Assembly: GCA_029269725.1 (NCBI GenBank)
Contig: JARJHS010000010.1
Coordinates: 62,001 to 126,000, forward strand
Source of the DNA: Pollutibacter soli
Lineage (GTDB): Bacteria; Bacteroidota; Bacteroidia; Chitinophagales; Chitinophagaceae
DNA: 64,000 nucleotides
Direction: 5' to 3'
In this document: one piece after another, positions 14,296 to 63,253 of the stretch
Numbering within the stretch: position 1 is the first letter of the stretch
Layout: every line of letters starts with the position of its first letter
Notes under the pieces: model-generated
Told to the model about the DNA's origin: nothing
The model's input: the letters and a program-made list of their open reading frames with translations, nothing else
The model's database searches: none
Position numbers and translations under genes: made by a program

Positions 14296-15111
14296 ATGAT
14301 TAAAAGAACAATTATGCAAAAGACGAAAATGCTCAACCGAATCAGCCTGGTATTATTCAGCAGCCTGTTGTTAGTAGCCAGTTCATGTAAAAAAGATGAT
14401 AAACCGAATCCGCAACCTGAGCCACAAAGCAAACTCACTGAGTACAAGGATGGTGAAGATTTTGTGCGCTTCCAGTACAATACTGACGGAACGATTAAGA
14501 AAGCTACCGTTAAAAATGAAATCAATACGGATAATGATATCGTTGATTTCACTCTCACCTATAATGATCAGAAAGTGATCACTGAAATGAACAGCAGCTC
14601 TGGTGAAAAAATTGTTCCGGTGTATGCCAATGGTGTTCTCGAGCGTGCCGATATTTTTATGGCAGGTGAGCGTACCGGTTATACAAACTATGTGTTTGAA
14701 AACGGGTACATGAAAAAAGCGACCATCTATGTTGGATCGGGCGTTGAATTCGAACCCATCCTTGAATTCGACTACAATTACAATGCAAACGGAAATGTAA
14801 CACAGGGCGTGATTATGATTGGTACTGATGTTCCTGGTCAGATGTTGAGAGCAGGGCATGTTAACCTTCAGCATGATACCAAAACAAATCCACTGTTTGC
14901 CTTCCGCGATTTTTTTGCGTTGCTCTGGCAGGGTCCTTCAAAAAACAACGTGACCGTGGAAGATGTGTTTGATGAAAACCAGGTACAGACTGATAAAAAT
15001 GTATACACCTATAACTACAATATCAAAGGATTTCCAAATGGTGCAACGGTGAAAAGTGGATTGCCCGGTCAGCCGCAGACGGAGAGTACTGTAGGATTTG
15101 TGTACCAGTAA
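14296..15111 (+). CDS. Hypothetical lipoprotein with YD-like beta repeats
   Basis: Secreted lipoprotein of about 271 residues with a clear signal and lipobox (LLLVASSC), then an acidic/proline linker (KKDDKPNPQPEPQ). The mature part has several short units with F-x-Y-N-x-D/N-G and turn-rich beta patterns, recalling the YD/RHS-like repeats of DUF4595-type Bacteroidetes lipoproteins. ATG 14296 or ATG 14314 are both possible starts; the frame is open further upstream but without a better start. Its stop codon TAA is the first part of a 7-bp repeat block (15109 on). Function unknown. Confidence 0.72.
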   Translation: MIKRTIMQKTKMLNRISLVLFSSLLLVASSCKKDDKPNPQPEPQSKLTEYKDGEDFVRFQYNTDGTIKKATVKNEINTDNDIVDFTLTYNDQKVITEMNSSSGEKIVPVYANGVLERADIFMAGERTGYTNYVFENGYMKKATIYVGSGVEFEPILEFDYNYNANGNVTQGVIMIGTDVPGQMLRAGHVNLQHDTKTNPLFAFRDFFALLWQGPSKNNVTVEDVFDENQVQTDKNVYTYNYNIKGFPNGATVKSGLPGQPQTESTVGFVYQ

Positions 15112-15381
15112 GTAGTAGGAAGGAAGTAGGGGTTGAATGTAAAAAGAGGAAAGTTAGCTTTTGTGAAAGTACTTTTTTCAATAACAGCAAGTCTAAACCT
15201 GGGAAATATGAAAGATCGGCGATGTGGGAAGATGCATTTTTCAATTTACACTGGTCTCAGCTAAAAGGAAAAGTGAAAAGTTGACTGGTGAAGGATGAAA
15301 GTTAGATGATGTGGATAGTGAGTGTATGCTCAATCAGCCTACGCTTAAACCAGGGGAAAAATGAAAGGTCAGCGATGTGGA
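15107..15381. repeat. Heptad stub and three imperfect copies of an ATGAAAG...GATGTGG unit
   Basis: Directly at the lipoprotein stop, 15107-15130 reads as 7-bp units (AGTAAGT, AGTAGGA, AGGAAGT). Then an approximately 37-bp unit occurs three times, at 15192-15229, 15284-15318 and 15342-15381; copies 1 and 3 start with CTAAACCTGGGAAA or CTTAAACCAGGGGAAA and all three contain ATGAAAG and GATGTGG. No gene is supported in 15112-15766. Confidence 0.6.
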
Positions 15382-15519
15382 CCGGTTTTAACCATGATCT
15401 TAAGTTGAGAACTGAACTGAATTGTGTGAGAAATGAAATTTGATCAAACACCAGGTCACTCAGGTTGTAAAATGTTAACCCTGATCTCAACACTTTAGAC
15501 TTTTGGTTTTGAATGTTTG

Positions 15520-15550
15520 AAAAGCCCGGCCATTTTGGTCGGGTTTTTTT
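15520..15550 (+). terminator. Rho-independent terminator
   Basis: GC-rich stem CCCGGCC / GGTCGGG (six of seven pairs) with an ATTTT loop, followed by seven T. It would stop transcripts coming from the lipoprotein gene about 400 bp upstream, and stands between it and the convergent dehydrogenase gene. Confidence 0.75.
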
Positions 15551-15636
15551 CGAATGAAAACTGAAAAAATCTTTAAAGAAACGAATTGCAATTCTTCAAT
15601 TCAACAGGCCCTGTTAAGACAATATGCGTGCCGGCA

Positions 15637-15767
15637 GGCTGTTCCAAACGAACAAGATTTCCCGCAGATCCCGCGGATTAAATACACGCTGATTTACGCA
15701 GATATTATCGCAAGGTCTTCCAAACGAACAACGAAGAACGAACAACGAACAACGAACAACGAACAAC
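15637..15767. repeat. GGCTGTTC linker and six GAACAAC heptads
   Basis: The linker GGCTGTTCCAA (15637-15647) is followed by AACGAACAAG. At 15726-15767 six tandem 7-bp units run without interruption: GAACAAC, GAAGAAC and four further GAACAAC. The last C of the last unit is part of the complement of the dehydrogenase stop codon (CTA at 15767-15769). Confidence 0.85.
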
Positions 15768-18694: not shown

Positions 18695-18728
18695 GCACCA
18701 AAGGTTTTGCTTTGGGAGGTGCAAAAAT

Positions 18729-18764
18729 ACACGTTATACGTTAAACGTTCAACGTAAAACGACT
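18729..18764. repeat. Heptad block of the GTTAAAC family between divergent genes
   Basis: Five 7-bp units (ACGTTAT, ACGTTAA, ACGTTCA, ACGTAAA, ACGACTA) fill most of the 83-bp gap between the dehydrogenase start and the lactonase start. The block therefore overlaps the region where both promoters are expected. Confidence 0.8.
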
Positions 18765-18777
18765 ATCTTCCACGCAA

Positions 18778-20840: not shown

Positions 20841-20844
20841 ATGC

Positions 20845-22433: not shown

Positions 22434-22690
22434 TGAGTTGTTAGTTGGTAGATGTTAGTTGTTAGTTAGTTCATAGTTCATAGTTCATAGTTCATAGTTG
22501 GAACAGCCGGTTGTTCGTTGATCGTTGTTTGTATGAGCAGCGGGTTTTCTGTTTTTGACTTTTCTTCCAGTTTTCAGCCTGCCTGTCCGGTAGGCAGGGC
22601 AGGCAGTTTTCCGTTTTTAGTTTTCGCGGTCTTTGTTTCTGTCTCTGGTCACTGGTTCTCTTCCGGTATTTTGTATTCTGTATCCTGTCC
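22434..22690. repeat. Large composite heptad block filling the gap between two operon genes
   Basis: From left to right: GTTGAGTTGTTAGTTGG units; four AGTTCAT units (about 22469-22498); linker TTGGAACAGCC (22498-22508); TTGTTCG/TTGATCG units; a hairpin with CTGCCT and AGGCAG arms (22577-22606); then TTTTCCG/TTTTTAG and TGTATTCTGTATCC units ending 4 bp before the stop of the RraA-like gene. Nearly all 266 bp between the two genes are repeat. Confidence 0.85.
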
Positions 22691-23809: not shown

Positions 23810-24997
23810 ATGATTCTTACCATTCCCAATTTCAGTAGTGAGGTTAAAGATGAATTGATGAGAATTATGGATTACTGGATAAAATACACCCCGGATGAAA
23901 TTAAAGGTGGTTTCTACGGACATGTGGATGCGAACAACAAACCCGATCCGGATTCTCCCAAAGGCATTGTTGTAAACGCACGCATTCTGTGGACATACGC
24001 TGCGGTGCAGCAGACATTTCCAGATTCTCAGTACCTGGTCATGGCAGATCGTGCTTATGGTTATATCAGGGATCAATTTATTGATAAAACATATGGTGGT
24101 GTTTACTGGCAGCTCAATTCCGACGGAACGCCACAGGTAAAAAAGAAGCAATTATACGGGCACTCATTCGCACTGTACGCGTTGAGTGAATATTGCAAGA
24201 TCAAAAAAGAAAAAAAGGTGCTGGATCTGACCAATGATCTGGCACATACGATGATCGGTTTTGCCTGGGACAAATGGGAGGGCGGTTATATAGAAGCGTT
24301 CGAAGAAGACTGGGACGAGACGGATGATTATATTCTTAGCAAGGGAGAGAATGTAAAATCGATGAATACGCATCTTCATTTGCTGGAATGTTTCACCAAT
24401 TACTATCATGCTACAGGAAATGACCTTGCGAAATATCATCTGAAGCACAGTATTGAGATGATGCTGGACAGGATAATTAATCCTGCAACCAACCGTATGT
24501 GGATGTTTTTCAAGGACGATTGGACACCGACGACAGATACCATTTCTTATGGTCATGATATTGAGGCATCATGGTTGTTGTTCGAAGCGGCGGAAGTGCT
24601 GGGAGATGAAAAATTAATCGCAAGGTGTAAGGAGATGTCACTGAAGATGGCAGCCGCTGCTGTTGATGGTCTTGCGAATGATGGAGCGATTAACTATGAA
24701 TATGAACCATCGACAAAGCATTTGCTGACACGCAAAGACTGGTGGCCGCAGGCGGAAGCGATGGTTGGATTTTATAATGCGTACCAGCTTTCCGGTAAAG
24801 TTCATTACAGGGAAAAAGCAGAGAAAGTCTGGATGTTTATAAAGAAACACCTGATCGATTATGAAAAAGGCGAATGGTATGGAAGTGTAAGTGCTGATTA
24901 TAAAACAAAATCAAAAGATAAAGTGACATTGTGGAAATGTCCTTATCATAATGGAAGGGCGTGTTTGGAAATGTATAAGAGGCTTAAAAGTAAGTAG
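23810..24997 (+). CDS. AGE-family epimerase (cellobiose 2-epimerase-like)
   Basis: Cytoplasmic (alpha/alpha)6-barrel protein of 395 residues in the N-acylglucosamine 2-epimerase family. Family motifs with the catalytic and binding His residues are present: KGIVVNARILWTYA (Arg binding), KKQLYGHSFALYALSEY, NTHLHLLECF, SYGHDIEASWLL and WWPQAEAMVGF. The combination and length match cellobiose 2-epimerases (beta-1,4 disaccharide to the glucosyl- or galactosyl-mannose form) better than renin-binding-type GlcNAc epimerases. It diverges from the RraA/enolase operon. Its stop codon TAG lies inside a GTAAGTA-type heptad block. Confidence 0.9.
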   Translation: MILTIPNFSSEVKDELMRIMDYWIKYTPDEIKGGFYGHVDANNKPDPDSPKGIVVNARILWTYAAVQQTFPDSQYLVMADRAYGYIRDQFIDKTYGGVYWQLNSDGTPQVKKKQLYGHSFALYALSEYCKIKKEKKVLDLTNDLAHTMIGFAWDKWEGGYIEAFEEDWDETDDYILSKGENVKSMNTHLHLLECFTNYYHATGNDLAKYHLKHSIEMMLDRIINPATNRMWMFFKDDWTPTTDTISYGHDIEASWLLFEAAEVLGDEKLIARCKEMSLKMAAAAVDGLANDGAINYEYEPSTKHLLTRKDWWPQAEAMVGFYNAYQLSGKVHYREKAEKVWMFIKKHLIDYEKGEWYGSVSADYKTKSKDKVTLWKCPYHNGRACLEMYKRLKSK

Positions 24998-25060
24998 TGA
25001 GTAGTAAGTGGTAAGCAGGGAACAGCCGGTTTAACGTATAAGGTTAAACGTAAAACGCAT
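24989..25060. repeat. Composite heptad block: GTAAGTA units, linker, GTTAAAC units
   Basis: AGTAAGTAGTGAGTAGTAAG is four 7-bp units, containing the epimerase stop codon; then GGGAACAGCCGG (linker); then TTTAACGTATAAGGTTAAACG and TAAAACG units. Between 25061 and 25420 there is no gene; it holds a small TTTCAGTTTTCAG stretch (25183-25204), a palindrome (25248-25291) and another heptad block. Confidence 0.85.
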
Positions 25061-25247: not shown

Positions 25248-25291
25248 GTAAAATCGTAGAGACGCGATGCATCGCCTCTCTACGATTTTAC
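25248..25291. repeat. 44-bp near-perfect palindrome of the GTAGAGACGCGATGCATCGC type
   Basis: The two arms start GTAAAATCGTAGAGACGCGAT and are complementary except for one base pair. Related but decayed sequences occur at 27415-27440 and 42797-42852, and the palindrome GATAACGCATGCGTTATC at 27272-27289 is similar. The form suggests a small non-autonomous palindromic repeat. Confidence 0.75.
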
Positions 25292-25361
25292 TGCCGTTGG
25301 CTTCCCATATTTTTGAAATACAGCCGAAATGGGTTAGCTTACCCAACAAGTTCTTCCTGAT

Positions 25362-25420
25362 TCTGTTTCTGTTTCTGTTTTCAGTCTTCCATTACCTGTA
25401 TCCCGTATCCTGTATTCTCC
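25362..25420. repeat. CTGTTT units and CCTGTAT heptads at a gene 3' end
   Basis: TTCTGTTTCTGTTTCTG steps by 6 bp, then CCTGTAT, CCCGTAT, CCTGTAT, TCTCCT step by 7 bp and end at the complement of the stop codon TAA of the SnoaL-like gene (25421-25423). Confidence 0.75.
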
Positions 25421-27022: not shown

Positions 27023-27126
27023 AATAGTAAGTGGTGAGTAGTAAGTCGTAAGCAGGAGTTTAAAGTTAAAAGTCAAAAGTTGAAGGTTTAAAAGTTGAAG
27101 GTTGTAGGTATTAAGTTATAAGTTCA
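27023..27126. repeat. Heptad block: GTAAGTG and AAGTTGA units
   Basis: ATAGTAAGTGGTGAGTAGTA, then AAGTCGTAAGCAGG, then repeated AAGTTAA, AAGTCAA, AAGTTGA and AGTTGAAGG units step by 7 bp. It lies upstream of the transporter gene in a 543-bp gap with no gene. Confidence 0.7.
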
Positions 27127-32991: not shown

Positions 32992-33024
32992 ATACGTTTT
33001 ACGTTCAACGTTTCACGTTCAACC
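32992..33024. repeat. GTTCAAC-family heptads at the icd 3' end
   Basis: ACGTTTT, ACGTTCA, ACGTTTC, ACGTTCA, ACCTA: four to five 7-bp units that end at the complement of the icd stop codon (CTA, 33024-33026). Confidence 0.8.
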
Positions 33025-46056: not shown

Positions 46057-46677
46057 ATGGCAAAAATCCTGGTCTTATTTGCGCATCCCTTGCTCGAGAA
46101 ATCGCGTGTGCATAGCAAACTTGCTGCTGCGGCAAAAAAAGTAAAAGGGGTGACTTTTCACGATTTATACGAAGAATATCCGGATTTTGATATTGATGTA
46201 AATGAAGAGAAAGAATTATTGCTTGCCCATGACATCATCGTTTTGCAACATCCATTCTACTGGTACAGCGCGCCACCCATAATTAAACAATGGCTGGACC
46301 TGGTGCTGGAGTACGGCTGGGCATATGGCAGGGGTGGTGTTGCATTAACAGGTAAATTTGTTCTCCAGGTGGTATCCGCCGGAGGAAAGCAAGAACTCTA
46401 CTCACCCGAAGGAAGAAACCGGTTTACCTTCCGGCAATTTCTTACTCCTTTCGAACAGAGTTTCCGGCTATGCCATATGGAATATCTTTCGCCATATGTT
46501 ATACATGGTACGCATCGTTTAAGTATAACCGAAATTGCCGAAGTTGCTGCAGGATATGCACAATTGCTTACTGCACTTCAAACGGGCCAGATACAACCCG
46601 AACAACTGGCCGGTGAAAATTATATTGATGGTGTTAAAGGATTGATCGCATTAAACAACTCATTACATGAACAGTGA
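46057..46677 (+). CDS. Flavodoxin-like NAD(P)H oxidoreductase (KefF/MdaB-like)
   Basis: FMN-dependent oxidoreductase of 206 residues. Motifs: LVLFAHPLLEKSRVHSKL (phosphate-binding start), VLQHPFYWYSAPPIIKQWLDLVLEYGWAYG (the FMN and substrate loop typical of KefF/quinone reductases). In E. coli, KefF is an ancillary protein of the KefC potassium efflux channel and also a quinone reductase. Here it overlaps the following KefC-like gene by 11 bp, the same pairing as in E. coli, so the joint role in electrophile or quinone stress is likely. Confidence 0.9.
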   Translation: MAKILVLFAHPLLEKSRVHSKLAAAAKKVKGVTFHDLYEEYPDFDIDVNEEKELLLAHDIIVLQHPFYWYSAPPIIKQWLDLVLEYGWAYGRGGVALTGKFVLQVVSAGGKQELYSPEGRNRFTFRQFLTPFEQSFRLCHMEYLSPYVIHGTHRLSITEIAEVAAGYAQLLTALQTGQIQPEQLAGENYIDGVKGLIALNNSLHEQ

Positions 46678-48556
46678 TTTTTTAATACAGGCACTAGGCT
46701 ATCTCGCGGCAGCCGTGGTTTTTGTACCGATCGCAAAAAAACTAGGCATGGGATCCGTGCTGGGCTATCTCATAGCCGGAATTATTATTGGTCCGTATGT
46801 TACTGGTTTTATCGGGCAGCAAGGTGATGATATCATGCATTTCGCTGAGTTTGGTGTCGTGATGATGCTCTTCCTGGTAGGATTGGAACTTGAACCTGAG
46901 TTGCTCTGGCGCATGCGTTCCAGTATACTTGGAATGGGCGGGCTGCAGGTGCTGATCACCGCAGCTGTGGTAGCATTATTGTCGTTGCCTTTCCATATGC
47001 ATTGGAAAGAGGGACTTGCTCTCGGGCTCATCATTGCGATGTCATCCACAGCAATTGTTCTGCAGACGCTTAATGAAAAAGGATTGATGCGTGCGTCAGC
47101 CGGACAAAGTGCATTTGCTGTATTATTATTCCAGGATATTGCCGTGATCCCGATACTCGCAGTGTTGCCGTTACTGGCTGTTCATTCCGTTGCCGCTACC
47201 GGGGCGGATGCAGAAAAACATACCTGGATCAGCGGCCTTCCGGGATGGCTTCGTACTATATCTGTCATTGGTGCAGTTGTGGGCGTTGTACTTGCAGGAC
47301 GATATATCATTAATCCATTACTGCGCATTGTGGCACGCACAAGGCTACGCGAAATATTTACTGCGACGGCATTATTGCTGGTGGTTGCTATCACTGTATT
47401 TATGGAGAAAGTAGGCCTGAGTCCTGCATTGGGAACATTTGTGGCCGGTGTCGTTCTTGCCAACAGTGAATACAAACATGAACTTGAAAGTGATATTGAT
47501 CCTTTCAAGGGTTTGTTGCTGGGTCTGTTTTTTATGGCTGTGGGGGCCTCTGTGAATTTTAATATGGTGGCTTCAAAGCCGATTCTCATTGTAAGTCTCG
47601 TGATGTCGATCATCCTGATCAAAGCACTGATTCTTTTTATGCTTGGCAGAGTTTACAAATTGGGCATGGATCAGAACCTGTTATTCGCGACCGCGCTTTC
47701 CCAGGTGGGTGAATTTGCATTTGTGTTGTTGTCTTTTTCTTCCGAAGGAAATATCCTGAGTAAAGAGGTTATCGAGATCATGATGGCGGTGGTGGCCATT
47801 TCCATGGCGCTCACACCATTCCTGCTTTTATTCAATGAAAAATGGCTCACACCAAAGCTGGGTTGTAAAATCGAAGAGAAGGTTGAAGAGGAAGTCACCG
47901 TCATCAACGAAAAAAACAAAGTCATCATTGCGGGCTTTGGCCATTTCGGAAGCACGATCGGTCGGTTTCTTCGCGCGAACGGAGTTACACCTACATTGCT
48001 TGAGATTGATTCCGATCAGGTGGAGCTGCTCCGGAAAATGGGTTTCAATGTTTATTACGGTGATGCCACACGCGCTGATCTCCTGAAATCTGCAGGAGCA
48101 GATGAAGCATCAATTTTAATCGTTGCAATAGGAAATCCTGAGAAAGTGTTGGAAGTAGTGGAAACTGCAAAGAAACATTTTCCTCACCTGCAACTGCTCG
48201 TACGTGCAAAAAACAGGATGGATGCATATGAGTTGATGGATGCGGGAATGATGCATATCTACCGTGAAACGATTGATACTTCTCTTCGTCTTGGTCAGGA
48301 TGCTTTAAAAATGCTTGGCTTCCGCGCTTATCGTACAAAAAGAGCAGCATCCATATTTTTAAAACATGACGAAAAATCATTGAAAACGCTGGCTGCCACT
48401 CGCGATGATCTTGGTCAGTACATTACTACTGCAAGGGAAAGAATGGAAGAACAGGAAAAAATTATCCAGACCGATTTGGAAGATATGGGTCTCAACCGCG
48501 ATGAAGCCTGGGATTCAGAATCGTTGAGGGAAGAAGCGGCGAACGTTGAACGTTAA
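46667..48556 (+). CDS. KefB/KefC-type potassium:proton antiporter with TrkA-N domain
   Basis: Membrane protein of 629 residues. About twelve transmembrane segments (residues 5-385) have the CPA2 features VGLELEPELLWRMRSS, SSTAIVLQTLNEKG, FQDIAVIPILAVLPLL. A cytoplasmic Rossmann-type TrkA-N domain follows (KVIIAGFGHFGSTIGRFLRANG, ATRADLLKSAGADEA) that binds NAD or glutathione adducts in Kef proteins. Efflux of K+ lowers cytoplasmic pH during electrophile stress. The last residues NVER are encoded by the heptad block that begins here. Confidence 0.92.
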   Translation: MNSDFLIQALGYLAAAVVFVPIAKKLGMGSVLGYLIAGIIIGPYVTGFIGQQGDDIMHFAEFGVVMMLFLVGLELEPELLWRMRSSILGMGGLQVLITAAVVALLSLPFHMHWKEGLALGLIIAMSSTAIVLQTLNEKGLMRASAGQSAFAVLLFQDIAVIPILAVLPLLAVHSVAATGADAEKHTWISGLPGWLRTISVIGAVVGVVLAGRYIINPLLRIVARTRLREIFTATALLLVVAITVFMEKVGLSPALGTFVAGVVLANSEYKHELESDIDPFKGLLLGLFFMAVGASVNFNMVASKPILIVSLVMSIILIKALILFMLGRVYKLGMDQNLLFATALSQVGEFAFVLLSFSSEGNILSKEVIEIMMAVVAISMALTPFLLLFNEKWLTPKLGCKIEEKVEEEVTVINEKNKVIIAGFGHFGSTIGRFLRANGVTPTLLEIDSDQVELLRKMGFNVYYGDATRADLLKSAGADEASILIVAIGNPEKVLEVVETAKKHFPHLQLLVRAKNRMDAYELMDAGMMHIYRETIDTSLRLGQDALKMLGFRAYRTKRAASIFLKHDEKSLKTLAATRDDLGQYITTARERMEEQEKIIQTDLEDMGLNRDEAWDSESLREEAANVER

Positions 48557-48897
48557 ACGTTAAAAGTAGAACGTTAAACGTAGAACGTTAAACGTACGCC
48601 TAAGCGGGTGCTTTGCTTATTCTTGTTTGCAGGCACCAATCAATATGATAATACAACTAACAATTATTACTTACCATTTCAATAAAGGATCAGATTACCA
48701 GTCAGCTGCAATATTTAACATTAAACCTGTAAGACTTAGTAAATGCTTTGTTTTCCCCATATTGTAAACAGGAGAACATTTCAATCAATCTTGTAAAGTA
48801 ATGTATAGACTGAAACCGGCAAATACGAATAAGCTTTGCCTTCGCATGAGCTAACGTTCAACGTTCTACGTTCAACGTTCTACGTTCAACGTCGTAG
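48541..48897. repeat. Pair of inverted heptad blocks flanking a gene-free 250-bp segment
   Basis: Left block (48541-48597): GTTGAAC, GTTAAAC, GTTAAAA, GTAGAAC, GTTAAAC, GTAGAAC, GTTAAAC. Right block (48851-48896) is GTTCAAC/GTTCTAC units, the reverse complement. Next to the blocks are two weaker inverted arms (48603-48632 and 48818-48844) sharing a perfect GCTTATTC. The middle has no coding frame. The block ends give the stop codons of the two convergent genes. Confidence 0.75.
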
Positions 48898-49985: not shown

Positions 49986-50019
49986 TCAGTTTTGATTTAG
50001 GAATAAAAGTAATTAATAG

Positions 50020-50399
50020 TTGTCAGTTGTCGGTTGTCGATGTCAGAAACAGCCAGTTCATCGTTGTTCGTTGTTCGTTTTTCGTTGAAACAGCCAGGTT
50101 TCTGTTTTCATTTGTAGTACACTGTCTCTGATTTCAGTTTCTCCGCTGGGTTGTCGGTTGTCTGAAGCAGCCAGTTCATCGTTGTTCGTTTTTCGTTGAA
50201 ACAGCCAGGTTTCTGTTTTCATTTGTAGTACACTGTCTCTGATTTCTGTTTCTCCGCTGGGTTGTCGGTTTTCAGAAACAGCCAGTTCATCGTTGTTCGT
50301 TGTTCGTTTTTCGTTGAAACAGCCAGGTTTCTGATGCCTGTTTTCAGTTTCGGTTCACTGTTTCTGTTTCCGTTTTCTGCTTTTCTAACTGTATTCTCA
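50020..50399. repeat. Three tandem composite repeat units of about 111-124 bp
   Basis: Units start at 50026, 50150 and 50260 with GTTGTCGGTTGTC; each contains, in order, GAAACAGCCAGTTCATCG, TTGTTCG/TTTTTCG heptads, the linker GAAACAGCCAGG and TTTCTG-type words, and units 1 and 2 also share TTGTAGTACACTGTCTCTG. Unit 1 has one more TTGTTCG heptad than unit 2. Unit 3 ends in TTTCTG/TTTCCG words and TGTATTC. No gene lies in 49986-50447. Confidence 0.85.
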
Positions 50400-50417: not shown

Positions 50418-50450
50418 GAGCTAACGTTCTACGTTTAACGTTCTACGTTA
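50418..50450. repeat. GTTCTAC heptads at the fmt 3' end
   Basis: GAGCTAACG, then TTCTACG, TTTAACG, TTCTACG, TTATAC. The complement of the fmt stop codon (TTA, 50448-50450) is part of the last unit. The lead GAGCTAACGTTC also starts the block at 48851. Confidence 0.8.
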
Positions 50451-51374
50451 TACCTTCCTGAATCCTCGCAGGAAATCTTCCACCTGCATCCTTTTCTTTC
50501 CTTCCAGTTGCAATTCTTTTACATCGACATATCCATCTGCACAGGCGAAGGATAATCTTTGTTTTCCATCGGTTTCAAATTCGCCGGGAGGAATTGACGG
50601 ACCGGTGATTCTCTTTTCTGTTTTGAAGATTTTGCAGTTTTTATTTTGCAGTGTAGTGAAAGCTCCGGGAAAAGGAGAGAGGCCGCGGACCTGGTTGTGT
50701 ACTTCAGCAGTTGTTTTGCTGAAATCAATTTTGCAATCTTCTGTAAATATTTTCGGTGCGTGTTTGAGTTGGTCGGGATTCAGCTGGTCCTGGGTGATGG
50801 TACTGATATCACCATTGACTATTTTCTGAATGGTTTCCACTAAAAGATCTGCTCCCACCACTTTCATACGGTCATGTAATTCACCAGCAGTTTCATTTTC
50901 GCCGATGGAAATCCTCCTTTGAAGAAGAATATCTCCGGTGTCGATCTGGTGTTTCAGTTTGAAGGTAGTGACGCCTGTTTCCGTTTCTCCATTCATAATG
51001 GCGCGATTGATTGGTGCAGCTCCGCGATATTGAGGAAGTAATGAACCATGCACATTGATGGTTCCCATCGGCGGCATATCCCATACCATTTCCGGAAGCA
51101 TCCGGAATGCAACAACGATCTGCAGGTCGGCTTTTAATTCCTGCAACTCAGATAGGAAAGATGGGTCTTTTAATTTCAGCGGTTGAAGTACTTTAATACC
51201 ATTAGCAACAGCAAATTTTTTGACTGCACTCTCATTGACCTGCAAACCACGGCCCGCGGGTTTGTCTGGCGCGGTAACCACAGCAATCACTTCAAAACCA
51301 GCATTCAGTACGGCTTCCAGCGAAGCGACTGCAAAATCCGGGGTTCCCATAAAAATAATCCGGGGATTTTTCAT
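50448..51374 (-). CDS. fmt: Methionyl-tRNA formyltransferase
   Basis: Housekeeping enzyme of 308 residues that formylates initiator Met-tRNA using 10-formyltetrahydrofolate. Motifs: IIFMGTPDFAVASLEAVL at the N terminus; NVHGSLLPQYRGAAPINRAIMNGETETGVT, with the catalytic Asn, His and the SLLP loop, and ITQDQ followed by the C-terminal tRNA-binding domain (FPGAFTTLQNKN). It is a single minus-strand gene whose stop codon lies within a heptad block. Nothing unusual in length or in the active site. Confidence 0.96.
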   Translation of the reverse strand: MKNPRIIFMGTPDFAVASLEAVLNAGFEVIAVVTAPDKPAGRGLQVNESAVKKFAVANGIKVLQPLKLKDPSFLSELQELKADLQIVVAFRMLPEMVWDMPPMGTINVHGSLLPQYRGAAPINRAIMNGETETGVTTFKLKHQIDTGDILLQRRISIGENETAGELHDRMKVVGADLLVETIQKIVNGDISTITQDQLNPDQLKHAPKIFTEDCKIDFSKTTAEVHNQVRGLSPFPGAFTTLQNKNCKIFKTEKRITGPSIPPGEFETDGKQRLSFACADGYVDVKELQLEGKKRMQVEDFLRGFRKV

Positions 51375-51662: not shown

Positions 51663-52124
51663 ATGCAAGCAAAAGTGGGTGATGTGGTACGGGTACACTA
51701 CACCGGCAAATTACTTGATGGCACTACTTTCGATTCGTCCGTCGGTCGCAGTCCGCTGGAATTTACCGTCGGTGGTGGAATGATGATCGCCGGTTTCGAT
51801 GAAGGCGTAAAAGGAATGCAAGTGGGTGATAAAAAAACAATCCAGATCGCGCCCGGAGATGCTTATGGTGAAAGGGATGAATCGGCTGTGATCGATTTTC
51901 CGAAATCAAATATCCCGGAAAATATGCCGATCGAAGCAGGTATGCAGTTAACGCTGAGAGATCAGAGAGGGAATCCTATTCCTGTTGTTGTTCTTGAGGT
52001 GAAAGATGACATTATCGTTCTCGATGCAAATCACGCGCTTGCTGGCAAGGACCTCGTTTTTGATGTTGAGCTGGTGGAAATCGTTGGCGGAAAACCGTTG
52101 ATTATTACGCCGGATCAATTTTAA
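51663..52124 (+). CDS. FKBP-type peptidyl-prolyl isomerase (SlyD-like)
   Basis: Cytoplasmic prolyl isomerase and chaperone of 153 residues. The FKBP core (VVRVHYTGKLLDGTTFDSS and GFDEGVKGMQVGDKKTIQIAPGDAYG) is followed by an IF (insert-in-flap) chaperone domain (PKSNIPENMPIEAGMQL.. and LDANHALAGKDLVFDVEL), as in SlyD. It lacks the His-rich tail of E. coli SlyD. Single gene, with a strong terminator 160 bp further on; the sequence before it (51375-51662) has no feature that I can name. Confidence 0.92.
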   Translation: MQAKVGDVVRVHYTGKLLDGTTFDSSVGRSPLEFTVGGGMMIAGFDEGVKGMQVGDKKTIQIAPGDAYGERDESAVIDFPKSNIPENMPIEAGMQLTLRDQRGNPIPVVVLEVKDDIIVLDANHALAGKDLVFDVELVEIVGGKPLIITPDQF

Positions 52125-52129
52125 AAGGA

Positions 52130-52219
52130 GACGGTAGACGGTAGGAACAGCCAGGCAATAGTAAAAAGGCAATAGGCAACAGGAACAGCCAGTGAGTAGT
52201 AGTAGGTGAGTAGTATCAG
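52130..52219. repeat. Composite heptad block with two GAACAGCC linkers
   Basis: GACGGTA, GACGGTA, GGAACAG, CCAGGCA, then AGGCAAT/AGGCAAC units, a second GGAACAGCCAG and GTGAGTAGTAGTAGGTGAGTAG. It starts 5 bp after the FKBP stop codon. Confidence 0.8.
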
Positions 52220-52895: not shown

Positions 52896-52950
52896 CGTAC
52901 CTTTTTACTTCTTACCTCTCACCTTTTGCCTTTTACCTCTCACTTTCTCC
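52896..52950. repeat. ACCTTTT/ACCTCTC heptads overlapping a gene 3' end
   Basis: ACCTTTT, TACTTCTT, ACCTCTC, ACCTTTT, GCCTTTT, ACCTCTC, ACTTTCT step by 7 bp. The stop codon of the next gene (TCA complement, 52940-52942) and its last three codons (RRK) are within the block. Confidence 0.75.
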
Positions 52951-53485
52951 TCAGCCACCATCCCAGCCAGGCTCCGCAAAGTCCCCACATCATTATTCCA
53001 TCCGCAAAACTTGCACCGATATCTCTTGAATCATACCAGATATGTGTAGATAACGCAAAAGTGGAAAACCCGATGAGCCCGATAAAAATGGATGACAGCA
53101 CTATCGTTCCGAAGGAAGGATTCTGCATTTTTGAAAAGATCCAGATCAGTAATGCTGCGCAAACAATGCAGGAAAGCAAACCTTTAATGATGTTCGCTCC
53201 CATGTTCATATCATACGATTTATGATAGGAGACTTTTGCCCAGGGCTTTCCTTTGCTTTCGTCCATCAGTGCCTGGAACTGTTCCTGTGAAGATTCCCTT
53301 GGTAAGCTGGGCATGTAGAAATCACCATCTTCTGAAAATTGCGTGTTCAGAAAATCCATGACTTCCTTTTGTTTGGGTGTATATGCCACAGCGCTTTCGT
53401 GAAAATTGGCAACCGTCCATGAAATCGTTTGCCATGCGAAACTAATGATGCCACCTACAATAGCACCGATGATCCATTTTTTCAT
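52940..53485 (-). CDS. Hypothetical membrane protein
   Basis: Integral membrane protein of 181 residues: one N-terminal helix (WIIGAIVGGIISFAWQTI), a soluble middle region (residues about 25-90), then three helices (LLSCIVCAALLIWIF, FGTIVLSSIFIGLIGF, and a last GLCGAWLGWWL segment). The helix with Gly/Ser small residues suggests close packing. It is not a family I can name, though similar small envelope proteins are common in Bacteroidetes. Stand-alone gene. Confidence 0.75.
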   Translation of the reverse strand: MKKWIIGAIVGGIISFAWQTISWTVANFHESAVAYTPKQKEVMDFLNTQFSEDGDFYMPSLPRESSQEQFQALMDESKGKPWAKVSYHKSYDMNMGANIIKGLLSCIVCAALLIWIFSKMQNPSFGTIVLSSIFIGLIGFSTFALSTHIWYDSRDIGASFADGIMMWGLCGAWLGWWLRRK

Positions 53486-56280: not shown

Positions 56281-56472
56281 ACAATAGTAAGGAGGCAACA
56301 GGAACAGCCAGTAAGTTGTAAGAAGTAAGTAGCTGTCTGCCGGCAGCCAGGTAAGCGGAACAGCCGGCTGTTGGTGGAACAGGAAGCTTTCTGTCATAAC
56401 GAACAACGAACAACGAACAACGATCAACGAACAACGATCAACGAACAACGATCAACGATCAACTGACAATTC
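56278..56472. repeat. Composite heptad block with GAACAGCC linkers and nine GAACAAC/GATCAAC units
   Basis: At the stop of the stomatin-like gene: AGTAAGG, AGGCAAC, linker GGAACAGCC, AGTAAGTTGTAAGAAGTAAG units, a CTGCCGGCAG palindrome, a second linker inside CGGAACAGCCGGCTGTTGG (56360-56378), then nine units at 56401-56463 in the order GAACAAC x3, GATCAAC, GAACAAC, GATCAAC, GAACAAC, GATCAAC, GATCAAC. Confidence 0.9.
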
Positions 56473-56552
56473 TTAACAACTTTTTTACATAATTACCGCC
56501 GTTGCTCAACTGTATGCTTAAAACGGAAAACCTTCCTACCCGCAAGCAGGCT

Positions 56553-56620
56553 GGCTGTTCAAACTATGAACTATCAACTATGAACTATCAACTATGAACT
56601 ATGAACTATGAACTATGAAC
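56553..56620. repeat. GGCTGTTCAA linker and eight TATGAAC/TATCAAC heptads
   Basis: Linker at 56553-56562, then eight units at 56565-56620 in the order G, C, G, C, G, G, G, G at the fourth base (TATGAAC or TATCAAC). The alternation is the same kind as in the block just upstream. Confidence 0.9.
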
Positions 56621-56630
56621 TCTATATAAA

Positions 56631-57451: not shown

Positions 57452-57457
57452 TTCACT

Positions 57458-57856: not shown

Positions 57857-58105
57857 GCAGGAGTAAGCGGTAAAGAGGCAGGAGAGAAAAGAGGATACTG
57901 AACACGGAATGCAGAATACAGGGATAGAAACAGACACGGGATAGTGAATTGAAAACTGAAAACCGCAAACTGGTTGTTCGTAACAACAGGAAGTTGAAAT
58001 ATGGCAACCTCTGTGAACTGTGAACAGTGAACTTCTTCGGCTGTTCAAACGAACAACGAACAACGAACAACGAACAACGAACAACGGGCTGTTCAACTGA
58101 CAACT
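57856..58105. repeat. Composite heptad block between exbD and prmC
   Basis: Units follow from the exbD stop: AGGAGTAAGCGGTAAAG, GAATGCAGAATACAGG, GAAAACTGAAAACCG, TGTGAAC, TGTGAAC, AGTGAAC; then GGCTGTTCAA (58038-58047), five GAACAAC (58050-58084), and GGCTGTTCAACTGACAACTC (58086-58105). The prmC ATG follows 5 bp later. The whole gap of 254 bp is repeat. Confidence 0.9.
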
Positions 58106-58110
58106 CACTC

Positions 58111-58971: not shown

Positions 58972-59003
58972 CTTCTTTGCATTTAGCCGCCTAAGTCGTT
59001 CCT

Positions 59004-60095: not shown

Positions 60096-60101
60096 TGACG
60101 A

Positions 60102-60716
60102 ATGAACATGGCCGTTCTTACCCATTATTTTACAATAGAATCCACCGGATCCGCTGTATTTGAAGATCGCGGGAGCAAGTTTATCGGTTATACGTTTCCG
60201 GTAAAAACGGTTATTGATTTCAAAGAGGCACTGGCAAGATTAAAAAAAGAGCATCCGAAGGCATCGCATTTCTGTTTTGCCTATCGACTTGGCCTCGATG
60301 GAAACAATTACCGGGTCAGCGATGATGGCGAACCTTCGGGTTCTGCAGGCCGACCGATTTTAGGCCAGATCGATAGCAAAGAATTAAAAGATACACTCGT
60401 GGTGGTTGTGCGTTATTTCGGAGGCACTTTGCTTGGCGTTCCTGGTCTCATCAATGCATACAAAACCGCAGCTTCTCTCGCCATCCAGGTAACCCCCTCG
60501 GTAAGGAAATCCGTTGAGATCAATTACACTCTTCAATTCGATTACACACGAATGAATGAAGTAATGATTATTTTAAAAAGATTTGGCTGCACTATTCATC
60601 AACAGGAAATGCAATTGTTCTGTTCATTCAAAGTCGGTATTGCCGTTCAAAGCGAAAAGGACTTTCTGAAGCAAATGAAGGAAATACCAGGATTAACGTT
60701 AAACGCGGAACGTTAA
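60102..60716 (+). CDS. YigZ/IMPACT-family protein
   Basis: Cytoplasmic protein of 204 residues, the usual size of bacterial YigZ. The IMPACT domain motifs are clear: IESTGSAVFEDRGSKFIGYTFPV, HFCFAYRLGLDGNNYRVSDDGEPSGSAGRPIL and VVVRYFGGTLLGVPGLINAYKTAA. A C-terminal YigZ-type (DUF1949-like) domain follows. Its biochemical role is not firmly known; relatives bind nucleic acids or regulate translation. It is 6 bp from ribD. The last residues LNAER and the stop codon are from a heptad block. Confidence 0.9.
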   Translation: MNMAVLTHYFTIESTGSAVFEDRGSKFIGYTFPVKTVIDFKEALARLKKEHPKASHFCFAYRLGLDGNNYRVSDDGEPSGSAGRPILGQIDSKELKDTLVVVVRYFGGTLLGVPGLINAYKTAASLAIQVTPSVRKSVEINYTLQFDYTRMNEVMIILKRFGCTIHQQEMQLFCSFKVGIAVQSEKDFLKQMKEIPGLTLNAER

Positions 60717-60727
60717 ACGTTGAACCT
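60692..60727. repeat. GTTAAAC heptads at the end of the YigZ gene
   Basis: TTAACGTTAAACGCGGAACG, TTAAACG, TTGAACC. The stop codon (TAA, 60714-60716) lies inside. The next gene's stop, on the other strand, is 8 bp further on. Confidence 0.85.
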
Positions 60728-63090
60728 CATTCCGCTCTCAGACTATCCACCGGCTTTGCTCTTGCTGCCCTGATTGTATTCAAGCTCACAACAACTAATG
60801 TCAGCAATAGTACCATCACACCAACCAGTCCAAAAAGCCATACGCTGATATTAATTCTGAAAGTATATTTCTGCAACCAGTTGCTCATCAGCCACCAGGT
60901 AAGCGGTACTGCAATTACAAAAGCAATCATCACCAGTTTCAGGAACTCTTTTGAAATTAACATCAGCAGCTGCGGAACAGTTGCGCCGATGACTTTGCGA
61001 ATACCAATTTCACGAATGCGTTTTTCGATGGTGAATGACGCGAGGCCTGCGAGACCAAGGCAACAGATGAAAATGGCCAGGCCGGCAAAAATATTGATGA
61101 GCTTACTGATCAGTTCTTCTGAAGAAAATTTCTTAGCGAATTCCTCGTCTACGAATCGATATTCAAAGGGTTCTGCCGGGTTGAATTTTTTGAAGATGGC
61201 TTCTACGGCAGGTAATGCTTTCTGCAGTTGCGCATTATCTCTCAGACGAAGCGTAATTGTGTTTCCCCAGTTGGGATTGTAAAAAACCATCATCGGATCA
61301 ACTGGTTCAAATGGTGAACCCATGACATAGTTTTCAGTTACTCCTATTACTGTATATACTCTGTCCCCACCGTAGCGTAACTGCGTACCCACGGGATTTT
61401 TTATACCCATTACGTCGACAGCGGCTTTGTTTAATAACATCGATGCTGAGTCCACAGGTGTTCCTGAAAAATCTTTTCCATCGATAATTTTTATTCCCAT
61501 CGTCTTTGTGAAATCAACATCGCTGCTTTCCCCGGCGAAAATGATATTGGCATTCTCAGGTTTGCCGTCCCAATCGGGTGATGGACTGCGCATCCAGATA
61601 TCTGTAATGGGGGATAATGATCTTGTCGCAGCTTCAACCATTCCAGTACCCAGCAATTCACGTTTGATTGCAGGGAAATTTCTGCTGATATCATCACTTG
61701 AAGGAATCATGATCAGGTTGTTCGGATTGTAACCAATATCACGATTGCGAATATGTTGTATCTGCTGGTAGATAACAATAGTTGCGGATATCAGTAGTAT
61801 TGAAATTACAAACTGACCAACCACCAGAATTCTCCTGGGTAGTACAGCTGCTTTGCCAGGTAGAAATGTCCCTTTCAGCACTTTCACCGGGTTAAATGAG
61901 GAAAGATATAACGATGGATAACTTCCTGCAACCAGACCCGTAAATAATACAATTATCGTTGATGCCATCCAGAAGGAAGGCGCAGTAAAATCAAGTTGAA
62001 GTCTTTTATTCACGAGCGTATTGAAAGCCGGAAGAAGAAGATAAACAACAAGCACAGAAAAAACAAACGCTATTAAAGTAAGAATGAGTGATTCTGTAAA
62101 AAACTGAAGCACTAATTGTTTTCTCGGTGACCCCAGGGTCTTTCGAACACCCACTTCGCGGGCTCTTTTTTCAGAGCGGGAAGTGGAAAGGTTCATGAAA
62201 TTGATACAGGCAATCAGTAAGATGATGCAGGCAATGATGGTGAACATGCGCACATATTCAATCATTCCCCCTGCATTCTTTCCATCTTTAAATTCATTTT
62301 CCAGACGCCACTGCCTTATCGGGAACGCGAAGTACTTGCTGACTTTTTCGTCATTCGGACTATGTTTGTATTTGATCTCATTGATCTTTTTTTCAAGCGC
62401 GGCTATGTTGGCGCCAGGTTCAGCCTGGATGAATACCGTCCAGGACGAACTTCCCCATTCGTTCATTGCTCCGCGCAGGTAATCTCCATCATAATTAAAT
62501 GTGTTGATATAATCAAACTGGAAAGTTGAGTTGCCGGGAACATCGGCCACAACAGCAGTTACCCTGGCATCGTAATCGTTATCAATTCTTACAATCTTGT
62601 TTATAGGATCTGTATTCCCAAACAGCGATTTCGCAGTTGATTCAGTAAGTATCAATGAGTATGCATCCTGTATCGCTGTTTGCGGATTACCTGTAATAAA
62701 CTTCCACGAAAACATATCAAAGAAGCCATCACTTACTGTATGGCCTTCTTTTTTTAGATGTTTGTCTCCATATGAAAGTAAATGCGATTGCCTGTGTGTG
62801 GTGACCACTGCATTTTTCAGCTGTGGGATTTCCTTTTTTATGGTTGACGCCAACGGCAACACCATATTTTCATCTGTAAAAATCTGGTTGTTGAAATTCC
62901 GATGCGCCATCACCTGGAAGATATCGTTGTAATTTTTATGAAATTTATTAAACGACAACTCATCTTTCACCCAAAGAAAAATCAGTATTGTACACGTGAT
63001 ACCCATGGTAAGACCAAGGATATTTGTTACAGAAAATCCTTTGTTGCGGAAGAGACTTCTCCAGGCAATCTTCAAATAGTTACTCAGCAT
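60727..63090 (-). CDS. FtsX/MacB-type ABC transporter permease
   Basis: Large permease of 787 residues of the Bacteroidetes FtsX-like/MacB type. After one N-terminal helix (SVTNILGLTMGITCTILIFLWV) comes a large periplasmic MacB-PCD domain with residues such as LILTESTAKSLFG and TAVVADVPGNSTFQFD; then three helices with the FtsX core (CINFMNLSTSRSEKRAREVGVRKTLGSPRKQLVLQFFTES), a second periplasmic part, and a last FtsX domain (FAGLAIFICCLGLAGLASFTIEKRIREIGIRKVIGA). Such proteins work with an ATPase of the MacB type to export peptides or lipoproteins or to sense cell-wall stress. No ATPase is in the window. The next gene upstream is a paralogue. Confidence 0.88.
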   Translation of the reverse strand: MLSNYLKIAWRSLFRNKGFSVTNILGLTMGITCTILIFLWVKDELSFNKFHKNYNDIFQVMAHRNFNNQIFTDENMVLPLASTIKKEIPQLKNAVVTTHRQSHLLSYGDKHLKKEGHTVSDGFFDMFSWKFITGNPQTAIQDAYSLILTESTAKSLFGNTDPINKIVRIDNDYDARVTAVVADVPGNSTFQFDYINTFNYDGDYLRGAMNEWGSSSWTVFIQAEPGANIAALEKKINEIKYKHSPNDEKVSKYFAFPIRQWRLENEFKDGKNAGGMIEYVRMFTIIACIILLIACINFMNLSTSRSEKRAREVGVRKTLGSPRKQLVLQFFTESLILTLIAFVFSVLVVYLLLPAFNTLVNKRLQLDFTAPSFWMASTIIVLFTGLVAGSYPSLYLSSFNPVKVLKGTFLPGKAAVLPRRILVVGQFVISILLISATIVIYQQIQHIRNRDIGYNPNNLIMIPSSDDISRNFPAIKRELLGTGMVEAATRSLSPITDIWMRSPSPDWDGKPENANIIFAGESSDVDFTKTMGIKIIDGKDFSGTPVDSASMLLNKAAVDVMGIKNPVGTQLRYGGDRVYTVIGVTENYVMGSPFEPVDPMMVFYNPNWGNTITLRLRDNAQLQKALPAVEAIFKKFNPAEPFEYRFVDEEFAKKFSSEELISKLINIFAGLAIFICCLGLAGLASFTIEKRIREIGIRKVIGATVPQLLMLISKEFLKLVMIAFVIAVPLTWWLMSNWLQKYTFRINISVWLFGLVGVMVLLLTLVVVSLNTIRAARAKPVDSLRAE

Positions 63091-63105
63091 ATAGCATTTT
63101 TTTCA

Positions 63106-63140
63106 TTGAACGTAAAACGTATACCGTTAAACGTAAGAGT
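63106..63140. repeat. GTAAAAC/GTTAAAC heptads, first of an inverted pair
   Basis: TGAACGTAAAACGTATACCG, TTAAACGTAAG step by 7 bp. It lies 16 bp before the start of the permease gene and forms an inverted pair with the block at 63211. Confidence 0.7.
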
Positions 63141-63210
63141 TTGTTTAATATATCAGTATTATAAATTCGCCAGATACTTTTTCTAATGTTTTTTCTATAA
63201 TCGCATAGGA

Positions 63211-63253
63211 TAACTTTAAACGTTATGCGTTTTACGTTTAACCTGCAACGTTA
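63211..63253. repeat. TTTAACG/GTTTTAC heptads, second of an inverted pair
   Basis: ACTTTAAACGTTATGCG, TTTTACG, TTTAACC, TGCAACG, TTA. The stop codon of the upstream permease gene (TTA complement, 63251-63253) is the end of the block. The reverse complement matches the block at 63106-63140. Confidence 0.7.

What the first reader, a model, noticed from the sequence alone, without database searches (positions are those of the whole stretch)
15107..63253. Intergenic system of 7-bp tandem words in about ten sequence families
Some twenty gaps contain short tandem runs with a fixed 7-bp period but different words: GTTAAAC/GTTGAAC/GTAGAAC (18729, 32992, 48541, 48851, 50418, 60692, 63106, 63211), GAACAAC/GATCAAC (15726, 56401, 58050), TATGAAC/TATCAAC (22469, 56565), GTAAGTA/GTGAGTA (24989, 27023, 52190), TGTATTC (20904, 22670, 25395), GTTGTCA/GTTGTCG (20848, 50026), AGGCAAC (52145), ACCTTTT (52896). 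Most families have one (A/T)AC per unit on one strand, so the families look like variations on a common pattern. Variants alternate within a block (GAACAAC and GATCAAC; TATGAAC and TATCAAC). Heptanucleotide short tandem repeats are known from cyanobacteria, but I am not aware of a described system in this phylum where many different 7-bp words share the same places and linker. A period of 7, not 3, breaks reading frames and does not point to a protein-level role.
Basis: partly seen in the sequence, partly recalled or inferred. Interest (0 to 1): 0.85.

Follow-up and report, generated by a model that had tools for sequence, protein, structure and literature searches.

The report
Fast-changing seven-letter repeats between genes
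Many gaps between this bacterium's genes hold seven-letter DNA words repeated in tandem, and in a close relative the same gaps often carry different words, which points to a copying process with a fixed step of seven letters.

Summary
In the window only period 7 and its multiples stand out, and 21 of 23 listed places hold up. The pattern continues in an 864-kb sample of the genome (92 arrays at period 7, 0-8 at periods 4-6 and 8-12). Tandem heptamers are a known class, so this is a new variant of a known kind. New here: (1) units have a near-invariant core and free slots; for AACGAAC much the same slots vary in other genomes of several phyla; (2) a linker, GGCTGTT, lies 5' of many arrays in one orientation; (3) words turn over: one AACGAAC pattern has 111 hits here and a shorter form none in sister G006, whose same gaps often hold other words; (4) G006 has composite strings of arrays in a fixed order with ragged ends; (5) a separate palindromic class, AACGTT+N, favours gene 3' ends, has no linker here and a random slot without a trace of unit copying. 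Best reading: clade-specific heptamer satellites made by 7-nt-step, core-anchored copying and moved between gaps. Function unproven. No RVT_1 reverse transcriptase was found in this genome.

The parts
15723..15767 (+). (AACGAAC)n array, reaches the stop codon of the minus-strand gene 15767-18724
18731..18755 (.). ACGTNNN array (AACGTTN class) between two genes; absent in the orthologous gap of G006
22436..22499 (-). two adjacent arrays, (AACAACT)n then (AACTATG)n; G006 has an ACGT array in this gap
22502..22508 (-). linker GGCTGTT (reads AACAGCC on +) directly beside the AACTATG array
22666..22688 (-). (ATACAGR)n array, GTATTCT on +
24989..25015 (+). (AGTAAGN)n array overlapping the stop codon of gene 23810-24997; linker AACAGCC at 25021
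27023..27109 (+). AGTAAGN-type run followed by AAGTTGA-type runs; G006 has an ACGT array in this gap
32993..33023 (.). ACGTNNN array at the 3' end of gene 33024-34253
48541..48596 (.). ACGTNNN array that contains the end of gene 46667-48556
48853..48892 (.). ACGTNNN array that contains the stop codon of minus-strand gene 48858-49985
50018..50316 (-). string of AACYGAC and AACGANN arrays with linkers (AACAGCC at 50048, 50089, 50200, 50277; one more at 50318), partly duplicated in 111-bp units
50422..50457 (.). ACGTNNN array at the 3' end of gene 50448-51374
52129..52190 (+). (AGACGGT)n, linker AACAGCC 52146, (AGGCAAT)n, linker AACAGCC 52184, just after gene 51663-52124
52899..52943 (-). (AGGTAAN)n array (ACCTTTT on +) at the 3' end of ORF 52940-53485
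56281..56620 (+). gap between a Band_7 gene and a MotA_ExbB gene: AGGCAAC/AGTAAGN words, linkers 56303(-), 56359(-), 56366(+), AACGANN array 56398-56463, linker 56553(+), AACTATG array 56562-56621. G006 has AGTCGGG, ACGT and TTGCCTN arrays here
57860..58110 (+). string of degenerate words, AACTGTG array 58011-58033, linker 58039, AACGAAC array 58048-58086, linker 58087; no array in the orthologous gap of G006
60695..60725 (.). ACGTNNN array between the convergent ends of genes 60102-60716 and 60727-63090
63109..63136 (.). weak ACGTNNN array; a second weak one near 63215-63243; neither in the orthologous gap of G006

Best explanation
These are clade-specific heptamer satellites. A DNA copying process with a preferred step of 7 nt adds or duplicates units; it needs a short matching core (3-5 bases, such as AAC) and leaves one or more positions of the unit free. 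Short modules (linker GGCTGTTY plus an array) are copied between intergenic sites, most likely by template switching or recombination that uses the arrays themselves as homology, so words and linkers travel together and pile up into strings. The strings stay where they do least harm, in gaps behind stop codons and between convergent genes, and are rare in promoter gaps. Because new words keep displacing old ones, sister species hold different words in the same gaps. Shown: period, cores and slots, linker orientation, gene-end position, word turnover, composite strings in G006. Inferred: the 7-nt step enzyme, the core as a priming anchor, transfer between arrays, neutrality.
For: Period 7 dominates in the window, the genome sample and 345 kb from 18 other genera of the family (15 arrays at period 7, in 4 of the 18 genomes; 0-3 at other periods). 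Variation sits in slots: ACGT family variable at slot 6 in 44 of 48 G000 arrays, at core positions in 1-7; AACGAAC at slots 7 and 6 in 31 and 24 of 55, at positions 1, 2, 3, 5 in 1-5; AGGCAGT in G006 at slot 7 in 21 of 29; permutation p<=0.0002 for each. Positions 7, 4 and 6 also vary most in 146 AACGAAC arrays from 104 loci of other genomes, several loci being from one genome. Arrays tend to stop just after the core: in G000 26 of 54 AACGA arrays break after exactly AAC; in G006 17 of 36 AACTATG arrays after AACT (no formal test, and partly the same fact as slot variation). Unit-copy signature in G006 AACTATG arrays (slot 6: adjacent 0.64 against 0.56 within arrays, p 0.001; slot 7: 0.66 against 0.60, p 0.005), and AGGCA arrays in G006 are alike within an array (slot 6: 0.85 against 0.53 overall). 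Linker orientation and linker enrichment in gaps (0.52 against 0.16 per kb in G000; 0.87 against 0.15 in G006). Ten copies of a joint in G006 with arrays around it in the same order, 6 of 10 reaching through the linker to the last array, others broken off or diverged earlier, different flanks, none in 40 other congeners. Divergent gaps avoided (7 of 88 arrays against 22% of gap length); 40 of 117 stop-side distances within -10..+20 of a stop codon. Of 16 orthologous gaps 10 are occupied in both species, 7 of those with different dominant words (tallied by eye).
Against: The ACGT class does not fit plain slippage: its slot 6 shows no unit-copy signature (within-array identity 0.26 and 0.25, the same as overall 0.26 and 0.27; adjacent 0.27 and 0.23). 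Its arrays are short: in G000 stretches 4 cores is the commonest length among arrays of 3 or more and none exceeds 7, though G006 shows no such peak and a run of nine cores stands elsewhere in G000 (listing). AACGANN slots in G000 show no adjacency signal (p 0.28, 0.49), and G000 AACT arrays show it at slot 5 only. Slippage alone does not explain the step of 7 or the fixed linker. The orthologous gaps were not drawn without bias: most G006 contigs were fetched because they matched an array. Transfer between arrays was not caught in the act; sister genes are only 64-82% identical in the DNA alignments.
Confidence: 0.5

Rival explanations
1. The arrays are selected binding sites or RNA elements: the core is the site, the slot is a spacer, and the array at gene 3' ends ends transcripts, insulates convergent genes or binds an RNA- or DNA-binding protein. 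Strongest for the ACGT class, a row of palindromic AACGTT hexamers with one random base between.
For: Core near-invariant while the slot is random. ACGT arrays in 20 of 125 convergent gaps, 22 of 422 codirectional, 4 of 123 divergent. Consecutive ACGT in G000 gaps spaced 7 (192) or 14 (29), other spacings up to 29 bp 0-3 each; arrays short. Several listed arrays fill the gap from stop to stop.
Against: Unit order is not palindromic beyond shuffled order and energies do not differ. Gaps with arrays do not clearly lack terminators (4 of 20 against 30 of 99). Single AACGTT is not enriched outside tandems (rank 6 of 24 palindromes in G000, 10 of 24 in G006). The ACGT class is in both species in only 1 of 16 compared gaps. 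The ACGT pattern is absent from 39 congeners. No Rfam family in the window at gathering scores.
Confidence: 0.22
2. The strings are remains of a non-autonomous mobile element (REP- or MITE-like) moved by a Y1 (RAYT-like) transposase, and the heptamers are its internal minisatellites.
For: G006 has composite strings in one order at ten places. Y1_Tnp matches are most numerous in G006 (7), with 4 in G000, against 0-4 in 39 others. Palindromes with a GTAG foot lie within 12 bp of three G000 arrays.
Against: Composite ends are ragged and no terminal repeats were seen by eye; target duplications were not tested. Most AACGANN arrays have no linker beside them. G030 also has 4 Y1_Tnp matches but no ACGT-pattern hit.
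Confidence: 0.13
3. A template-guided repeat-adding enzyme (telomerase-like, retron or DGR type reverse transcriptase) writes the units; the free slot is its template boundary.
For: Core plus a free last position, ends on the core, random slot in the ACGT class.
Against: No RVT_1 match in this genome (listed as 99.99% complete), and only 5 of 41 genomes of the genus, G006 among them, have any. Very many words would need many templates.
Confidence: 0.06
4. Chance, composition or assembly artefact.
For: Only that two of the 23 listed places fail.
Against: Shuffle and Markov controls; the same class in an independent genome and in records of many phyla.
Confidence: 0.01

Closest known systems
Long simple sequence repeats with heptanucleotide units in prokaryotes (Mrazek 2007; not read, taken from its account in PMC4679880 and PMC4692102)
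   Same: [quoted passage not shown] a polymerase-contact cause was proposed there
   Different: Core-and-slot anatomy, oriented linker, composite strings and word turnover between sister species are not in the passages read
TAACTGA direct repeats of Beggiatoaceae, Cyanobacteria and five Bacteroidetes (MacGregor 2015, PMC4679880; abstract and sections 3, 10, 23 read)
   Same: Intergenic heptamers, patchy distribution, other heptamers mixed in, indels mostly in steps of 7 between two close strains
   Different: No tandem TAACTGA in the parts of G000 and G006 searched; in its main genome mostly just upstream of start codons, here mostly behind stop codons; here many words in one genome
GGGNATC repeats of Xanthomonas and Nostoc (Rehm 2015, PMC4692102; abstract, introduction and one results section read)
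   Same: Heptamer, intergenic, many near stop codons, few between divergent genes, preference for four units
   Different: G-rich and quadruplex-forming; [quoted passage not shown]
REP/BIME elements with RAYT transposases, and MITEs (recalled)
   Same: Dispersed intergenic repeats near gene ends; Y1 transposases present
   Different: No defined ends or terminal repeats seen
Telomerase-made telomere repeats (recalled)
   Same: Fixed core and variable position per unit
   Different: Many words, internal sites, no RVT_1 reverse transcriptase found

Membership tests
Heptanucleotide simple sequence repeats (LSSR) | Tandem units of 7 longer than expected by chance | tested here: met
Heptanucleotide simple sequence repeats (LSSR) | Mostly outside coding sequence | tested here: met
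   mean coding overlap of arrays 25% against 86% of all bases; crude ORF calls
Heptanucleotide simple sequence repeats (LSSR) | Unit number varies between strains | not testable with these tools
   the closest genome found is only 64-82% identical in DNA alignments
TAACTGA repeats | Word TAACTGA in tandem | tested here: not met
   0 in 1.19 Mb of G000 and 0 in 238 kb of G006; the rest of both genomes not searched
GGGNATC / GGGGAYT repeats | G-rich heptamer in tandem | tested here: not met
   0 and 0 in the same parts
REP/MITE elements | Defined ends with terminal inverted repeats | tested here: not met
   ten composite copies in G006 have ragged ends (by eye only)
REP/MITE elements | Target-site duplication or precise empty site | not tested
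   gaps too diverged between the two species
REP/MITE elements | A matching transposase in the genome | tested here: inconclusive
   Y1_Tnp 4 in G000, 7 in G006, also in 21 of the 39 genomes without ACGT-pattern hits
Reverse-transcriptase-made repeats | Reverse transcriptase gene in the genome | tested here: not met
   RVT_1 0 in G000; divergent enzymes not excluded
Intrinsic terminators | Hairpin followed by a T run; arrays replace other terminators | tested here: inconclusive
   T runs are not a general feature of the contexts shown, though one (L134, 18282) has TTTTT soon after (by eye); another terminator in 4 of 20 gaps with ACGT arrays against 30 of 99 without

The most novel reading that the evidence does not exclude
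A core-anchored heptamer-writing activity exists in bacteria: a polymerase reaction that re-primes on 3-5 fixed bases and adds about one 7-nt unit per cycle with a free last base, so that arrays are born with random slots instead of being copied unit from unit. It would write lineage-specific lexicons at gene ends across many phyla, with AACGTT+N arrays as its clearest product.
Probability: 0.13. Interest if true: 0.92.

Novelty: new variant of a known kind. Interest (0 to 1): 0.62.

Why it matters
That bacterial tandem repeats often prefer a unit of seven was noticed before, and in the passages read a cause was proposed but not tested. The core-and-slot rule, found again for one word in genomes of several phyla, and the random slot of the ACGT class make it a testable question: copying by slippage must copy the slot, and in one class here it does not. 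The pair G000/G006, with 175 and 388 hits of the ACGT pattern against none in 39 congeners, gives a natural system for finding the responsible gene. Repeats that change words within a genus while using the same gaps also matter for gap annotation, terminators and strain typing.

Tried and rejected
Palindromic order of units (hairpin with compensating slots) in ACGT arrays: no excess over shuffled unit order in either genome (38 and 19 arrays of 4 or more cores, p 0.25 and 0.18; energies p 0.16 and 0.65). Arrays as replacements for terminators: no clear difference. Reverse transcriptase: no RVT_1 in G000. A universal AAC in all words: among 61 words from other genomes more than two changes from AACGAAC, 18 have AAC against 12.1 +/- 2.8 for shuffled letters; 4 of 20 words in the congener and other-genus samples; weak. 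A tRNA-loop-like reading of the words was considered and dropped because the free slot falls at different loop positions in different families (no call). Asymmetry of array ends in other genomes: only modest. Known RNA families: none in the window. Orientation of arrays to genes: mixed, small numbers.

Own-genome statistics rest on 864 kb (41 pieces) or, where 1.19 Mb is meant, also on 27 pieces chosen because they hold AACGAAC arrays and 13 further stretches. Arrays in overlapping pieces were removed by flank or sequence identity, not. Most G006 contigs were chosen because they matched an array (mainly AACTATG), so word counts in G006 are biased; G006 is listed as 87% complete. Reference words were picked by me after seeing the arrays. 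One search drew 395 genomes of the phylum. ORFs were called by a simple script. The tally of 16 orthologous gaps was made by eye. Searches for print: in the held open-access library only; Mrazek 2007 was not read.


Full report
What was checked. Tandem Repeats Finder lists period-7 arrays at most of the places named. Counting runs where a base equals the base p positions on, period 7 has 14 runs of 9 or more against 0.3 in shuffles, its multiples 14, 21 and 28 have 18, 13 and 9, and the other periods from 2 to 30 have 0-3. Of 23 named coordinates 21 exceed the local null at p<=0.035 and 2 do not (52190, 20904). In 41 pieces totalling 864 kb the preference holds: 92 mismatch-tolerant arrays at period 7; periods 4, 5, 6, 8, 9, 10, 11 and 12 have 1, 0, 8, 1, 8, 0, 0 and 8. 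Perfect runs in that sample are 79 at period 7; periods 3, 6, 12 and 15 are also above the Markov control, at 17-22.

Words and their anatomy. The common families in this genome are ACGTTNA, AACGAAC, AGTAAGN and AACTATG, with AGGCANN, ATACAGR, AACTGAC and AGACNGN rarer. Within a family the units keep a core and vary at slots. Arrays of three or more units that vary at each of the seven positions: ACGTTAA in G000 [1,7,5,4,16,44,25] of 48 and in G006 [0,2,9,0,10,34,5] of 35; AACGAAC in G000 [5,4,5,13,1,24,31] of 55; AGGCAGT in G006 [2,2,5,2,5,5,21] of 29; AACTATG in G006 [1,3,0,4,15,23,23] of 38; all p<=0.0002 against permuted positions. Results that do not reach this: AACTATG in G000 (12 arrays, p 0.068), AGTAAGT in G000 (11, p 0.037), AGGCAGT in G000 (6, p 0.010), AGTAAGT in G006 (4, p 0.79), AACGAAC in G006 (1 array, p 0.05).

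The same slots elsewhere. In those 109 loci period 7 has 288 arrays and periods 5, 6, 8, 9, 10 and 11 have 1-15, in a set selected for period 7. In 146 AACGAAC arrays from 104 of these loci the arrays variable per position are [24,20,22,42,15,30,47]: positions 7, 4 and 6 vary most and position 5 least, close to the order in G000. The free slots are therefore not only a matter of this lineage's history.

Are units copied from each other? If arrays grow by slippage, neighbouring units share their slot base. In G006 AACTATG arrays they do (slot 5 p 0.031, slot 6 p 0.001, slot 7 p 0.005); in G000 AACT arrays only slot 5 shows it (p 0.012; slots 6 and 7 p 0.38 and 0.24). AGGCA arrays in G006 are alike within an array (0.85 against 0.53 overall at slot 6) without an order effect (p 0.53). 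In the ACGT class slot 6 is random: identity within arrays 0.26 (62 arrays, 261 units, G000) and 0.25 (37 arrays, 152 units, G006), the same as over all units (0.26, 0.27); adjacent pairs 0.27 and 0.23. AACGANN slots in G000 show no order effect (p 0.28, 0.49). Slots 5 and 7 of ACGT arrays give p 0.33 and 0.031 in G000, 0.018 and 0.002 in G006. ACGT chains in gaps of the G000 stretches number 2:21, 3:13, 4:19, 5:11, 6:6, 7:2 by cores, in G006 2:13, 3:10, 4:6, 5:3, 6:1, 7:1; spacing is 7 in 192 and 14 in 29 neighbouring pairs in G000; single AACGTT outside tandems is not enriched. A run of nine cores elsewhere in G000 appears in the listing. AACGANN arrays reach 14 units.

Linker and modules. 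GGCTGTT occurs at 0.16 per kb in coding and 0.52 per kb in gaps of G000; in G006 0.15 and 0.87. It stands within about 25 bp upstream of AACGANN arrays in 19 of 54 cases in forward and 2 of 54 in reverse orientation; downstream 7 and 0. Of 23 AGGCANN arrays in the 203 kb of G006 used, 15 have it, all 15 so that the linker precedes the array on the strand reading TGCCT. ACGT arrays in G000 have it at 0 of 85, in G006 at a few of 47 without orientation (3, 2, 2, 3). GCCGGCTGTTC has 37 hits in G000, 53 in G006 and 0-9 in 13 other congeners, where the reversed control is often as high. Strings such as linker-array-linker-array are seen. In G006 ten places share the joint AACATCTAAGAACTA; around it lie, in one order, a hexamer run, an ACGT array, the joint, an AACTATG array, the linker and a TGCCT array. 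Six of the ten run through the exact linker; the others diverge or break off before it, and flanks differ; 0 of the other 40 genomes of the genus have the joint.

Turnover. AACGAACAACGAACAACGA has 111 hits in this genome and single hits in 4 of 194 other family genomes. The 12-base form is absent from G006 and found twice in G007 among 16 congeners. ACGTTNAACGTTNAACGT has 175 hits here, 388 in G006 and 0 in 39 other congeners; of 394 other genomes of the phylum drawn evenly, 6 have 1-9. Sixteen orthologous gaps between G000 and G006 could be read. Arrays lie in both at 10: seven with different dominant words, one with the ACGT class in both, two that share the linker or the TGCCT word. Arrays lie in G000 only at 4 and in G006 only at 2 (by eye, and biased because most G006 contigs were fetched for an array). 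In samples of 18 other genera (345 kb) 15 arrays have period 7, all in 4 of the genomes, and 0-3 each other period, with yet other words. In samples of 12 other congeners (about 344 kb) there are 9 arrays at period 7 in all, 5 of them in 40 kb of G034, which is as dense as G000. Heptamers as such are thus not confined to G000 and G006; particular words are.

Place. Of 88 arrays with genes on both sides 36 lie in convergent, 45 in codirectional and 7 in divergent gaps, against 22.8, 50.2 and 20.3 kb of such gaps; 40 of 117 stop-side distances are within -10 to +20 of a stop codon, and 12 of 59 start-side distances are that close to a start. Many arrays contain or touch a stop codon. ACGT arrays lie in 20 of 125 convergent, 22 of 422 codirectional and 4 of 123 divergent gaps. 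Of 20 flanking window proteins scanned, 18 match Pfam families of ordinary enzymes, transporters and membrane proteins; no Rfam family matches the window.

How it most likely works. The dominant step of 7, the fixed core with free slots, and arrays that often stop right after the core (26 of 54 AACGA arrays after exactly AAC; 17 of 36 AACTATG arrays after AACT) fit a copying process that re-primes on the core; since arrays break where slots are, the end positions are partly the same fact. In other genomes the right ends of AACGAAC arrays also peak after AAC (31 of 109) while left ends are spread. Words and linkers then move between gaps, probably by template switching or recombination between arrays, which would explain strings in constant order with ragged ends and no terminal repeats. 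Position behind stop codons fits tolerance. The ACGT class may be different: short arrays, random slot, palindromic core and convergent gaps are what selected sites would show, yet its sites are mostly not shared between the two species, unit order is not paired and terminators are not clearly replaced. I keep that as the main rival.

Candidate genes. A Pfam RVT_1 reverse transcriptase is not found in this genome and is found in 5 of 41 genomes of the genus. Y1 transposase matches number 4 here and 7 in G006 and occur in 21 of the other 39; G030, with no ACGT-pattern hit, also has 4.

Known work. Heptamer repeats are a described class. MacGregor 2015 (PMC4679880; abstract, introduction, the section on Cyanobacteria and Bacteroidetes and the summary read) describes TAACTGA arrays and notes other heptamers beside them in some Bacteroidetes; [quoted passage not shown] Rehm 2015 (PMC4692102; [quoted passage not shown] In the library searched (listings and these two papers, plus passages of PMC4060949 and PMC8717266) I saw no account of core-and-slot units, an oriented linker or word turnover at constant places; subscription papers are mostly not held.

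Noticed in passing
window 25248-25291; L279, L285, L293 beside arrays: Palindromes with a GTAG foot (GTAGAGACGCGAT...ATCGCGTCTCTAC) that lie within 12 bp of AACGAAC arrays in three places; they look like REP elements of a RAYT system (recalled), and the genome has four Y1_Tnp matches.
   Followed up: partly
window 50068-50308: A 111-bp unit repeated 2.2 times at 96% matches, with an AACGANN array, linkers and hexamer words inside: a recent larger tandem duplication of a whole string.
   Followed up: no
L127 around 1350: A dispersed hairpin element built on GAACCACATAG with an inner rhythm of about 9 bp; CTATGTGGTT is among the most enriched 10-mers of the genome sample.
   Followed up: no
G006 composite strings, e.g. 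L307, L310, L314; window 25357-25380: Hexamer runs (AGAAACAG, GAGAAAGAG; CTGTTT in the window) accompany the heptamers; period 6 has 8 arrays in G000 (tied with 9 and 12) and 17 in the G006 contigs.
   Followed up: partly
G000 and G006 as whole genomes: The two genomes rich in the ACGT pattern (6.1 and 5.4 Mb) are the largest of the 41 in the genus; the others are listed at 1.4-4.1 Mb.
   Followed up: no
L346, L347, L349 (other genera of the family): Heptamer strings with other words and a two-valued slot, such as ACCATTG/ACCATTC in alternation.
   Followed up: no
L254, L255 (congener G034): Five period-7 arrays in 40 kb, as dense as the window's genome, though the ACGT and AACGAAC patterns are absent there; words not examined.
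   Followed up: no
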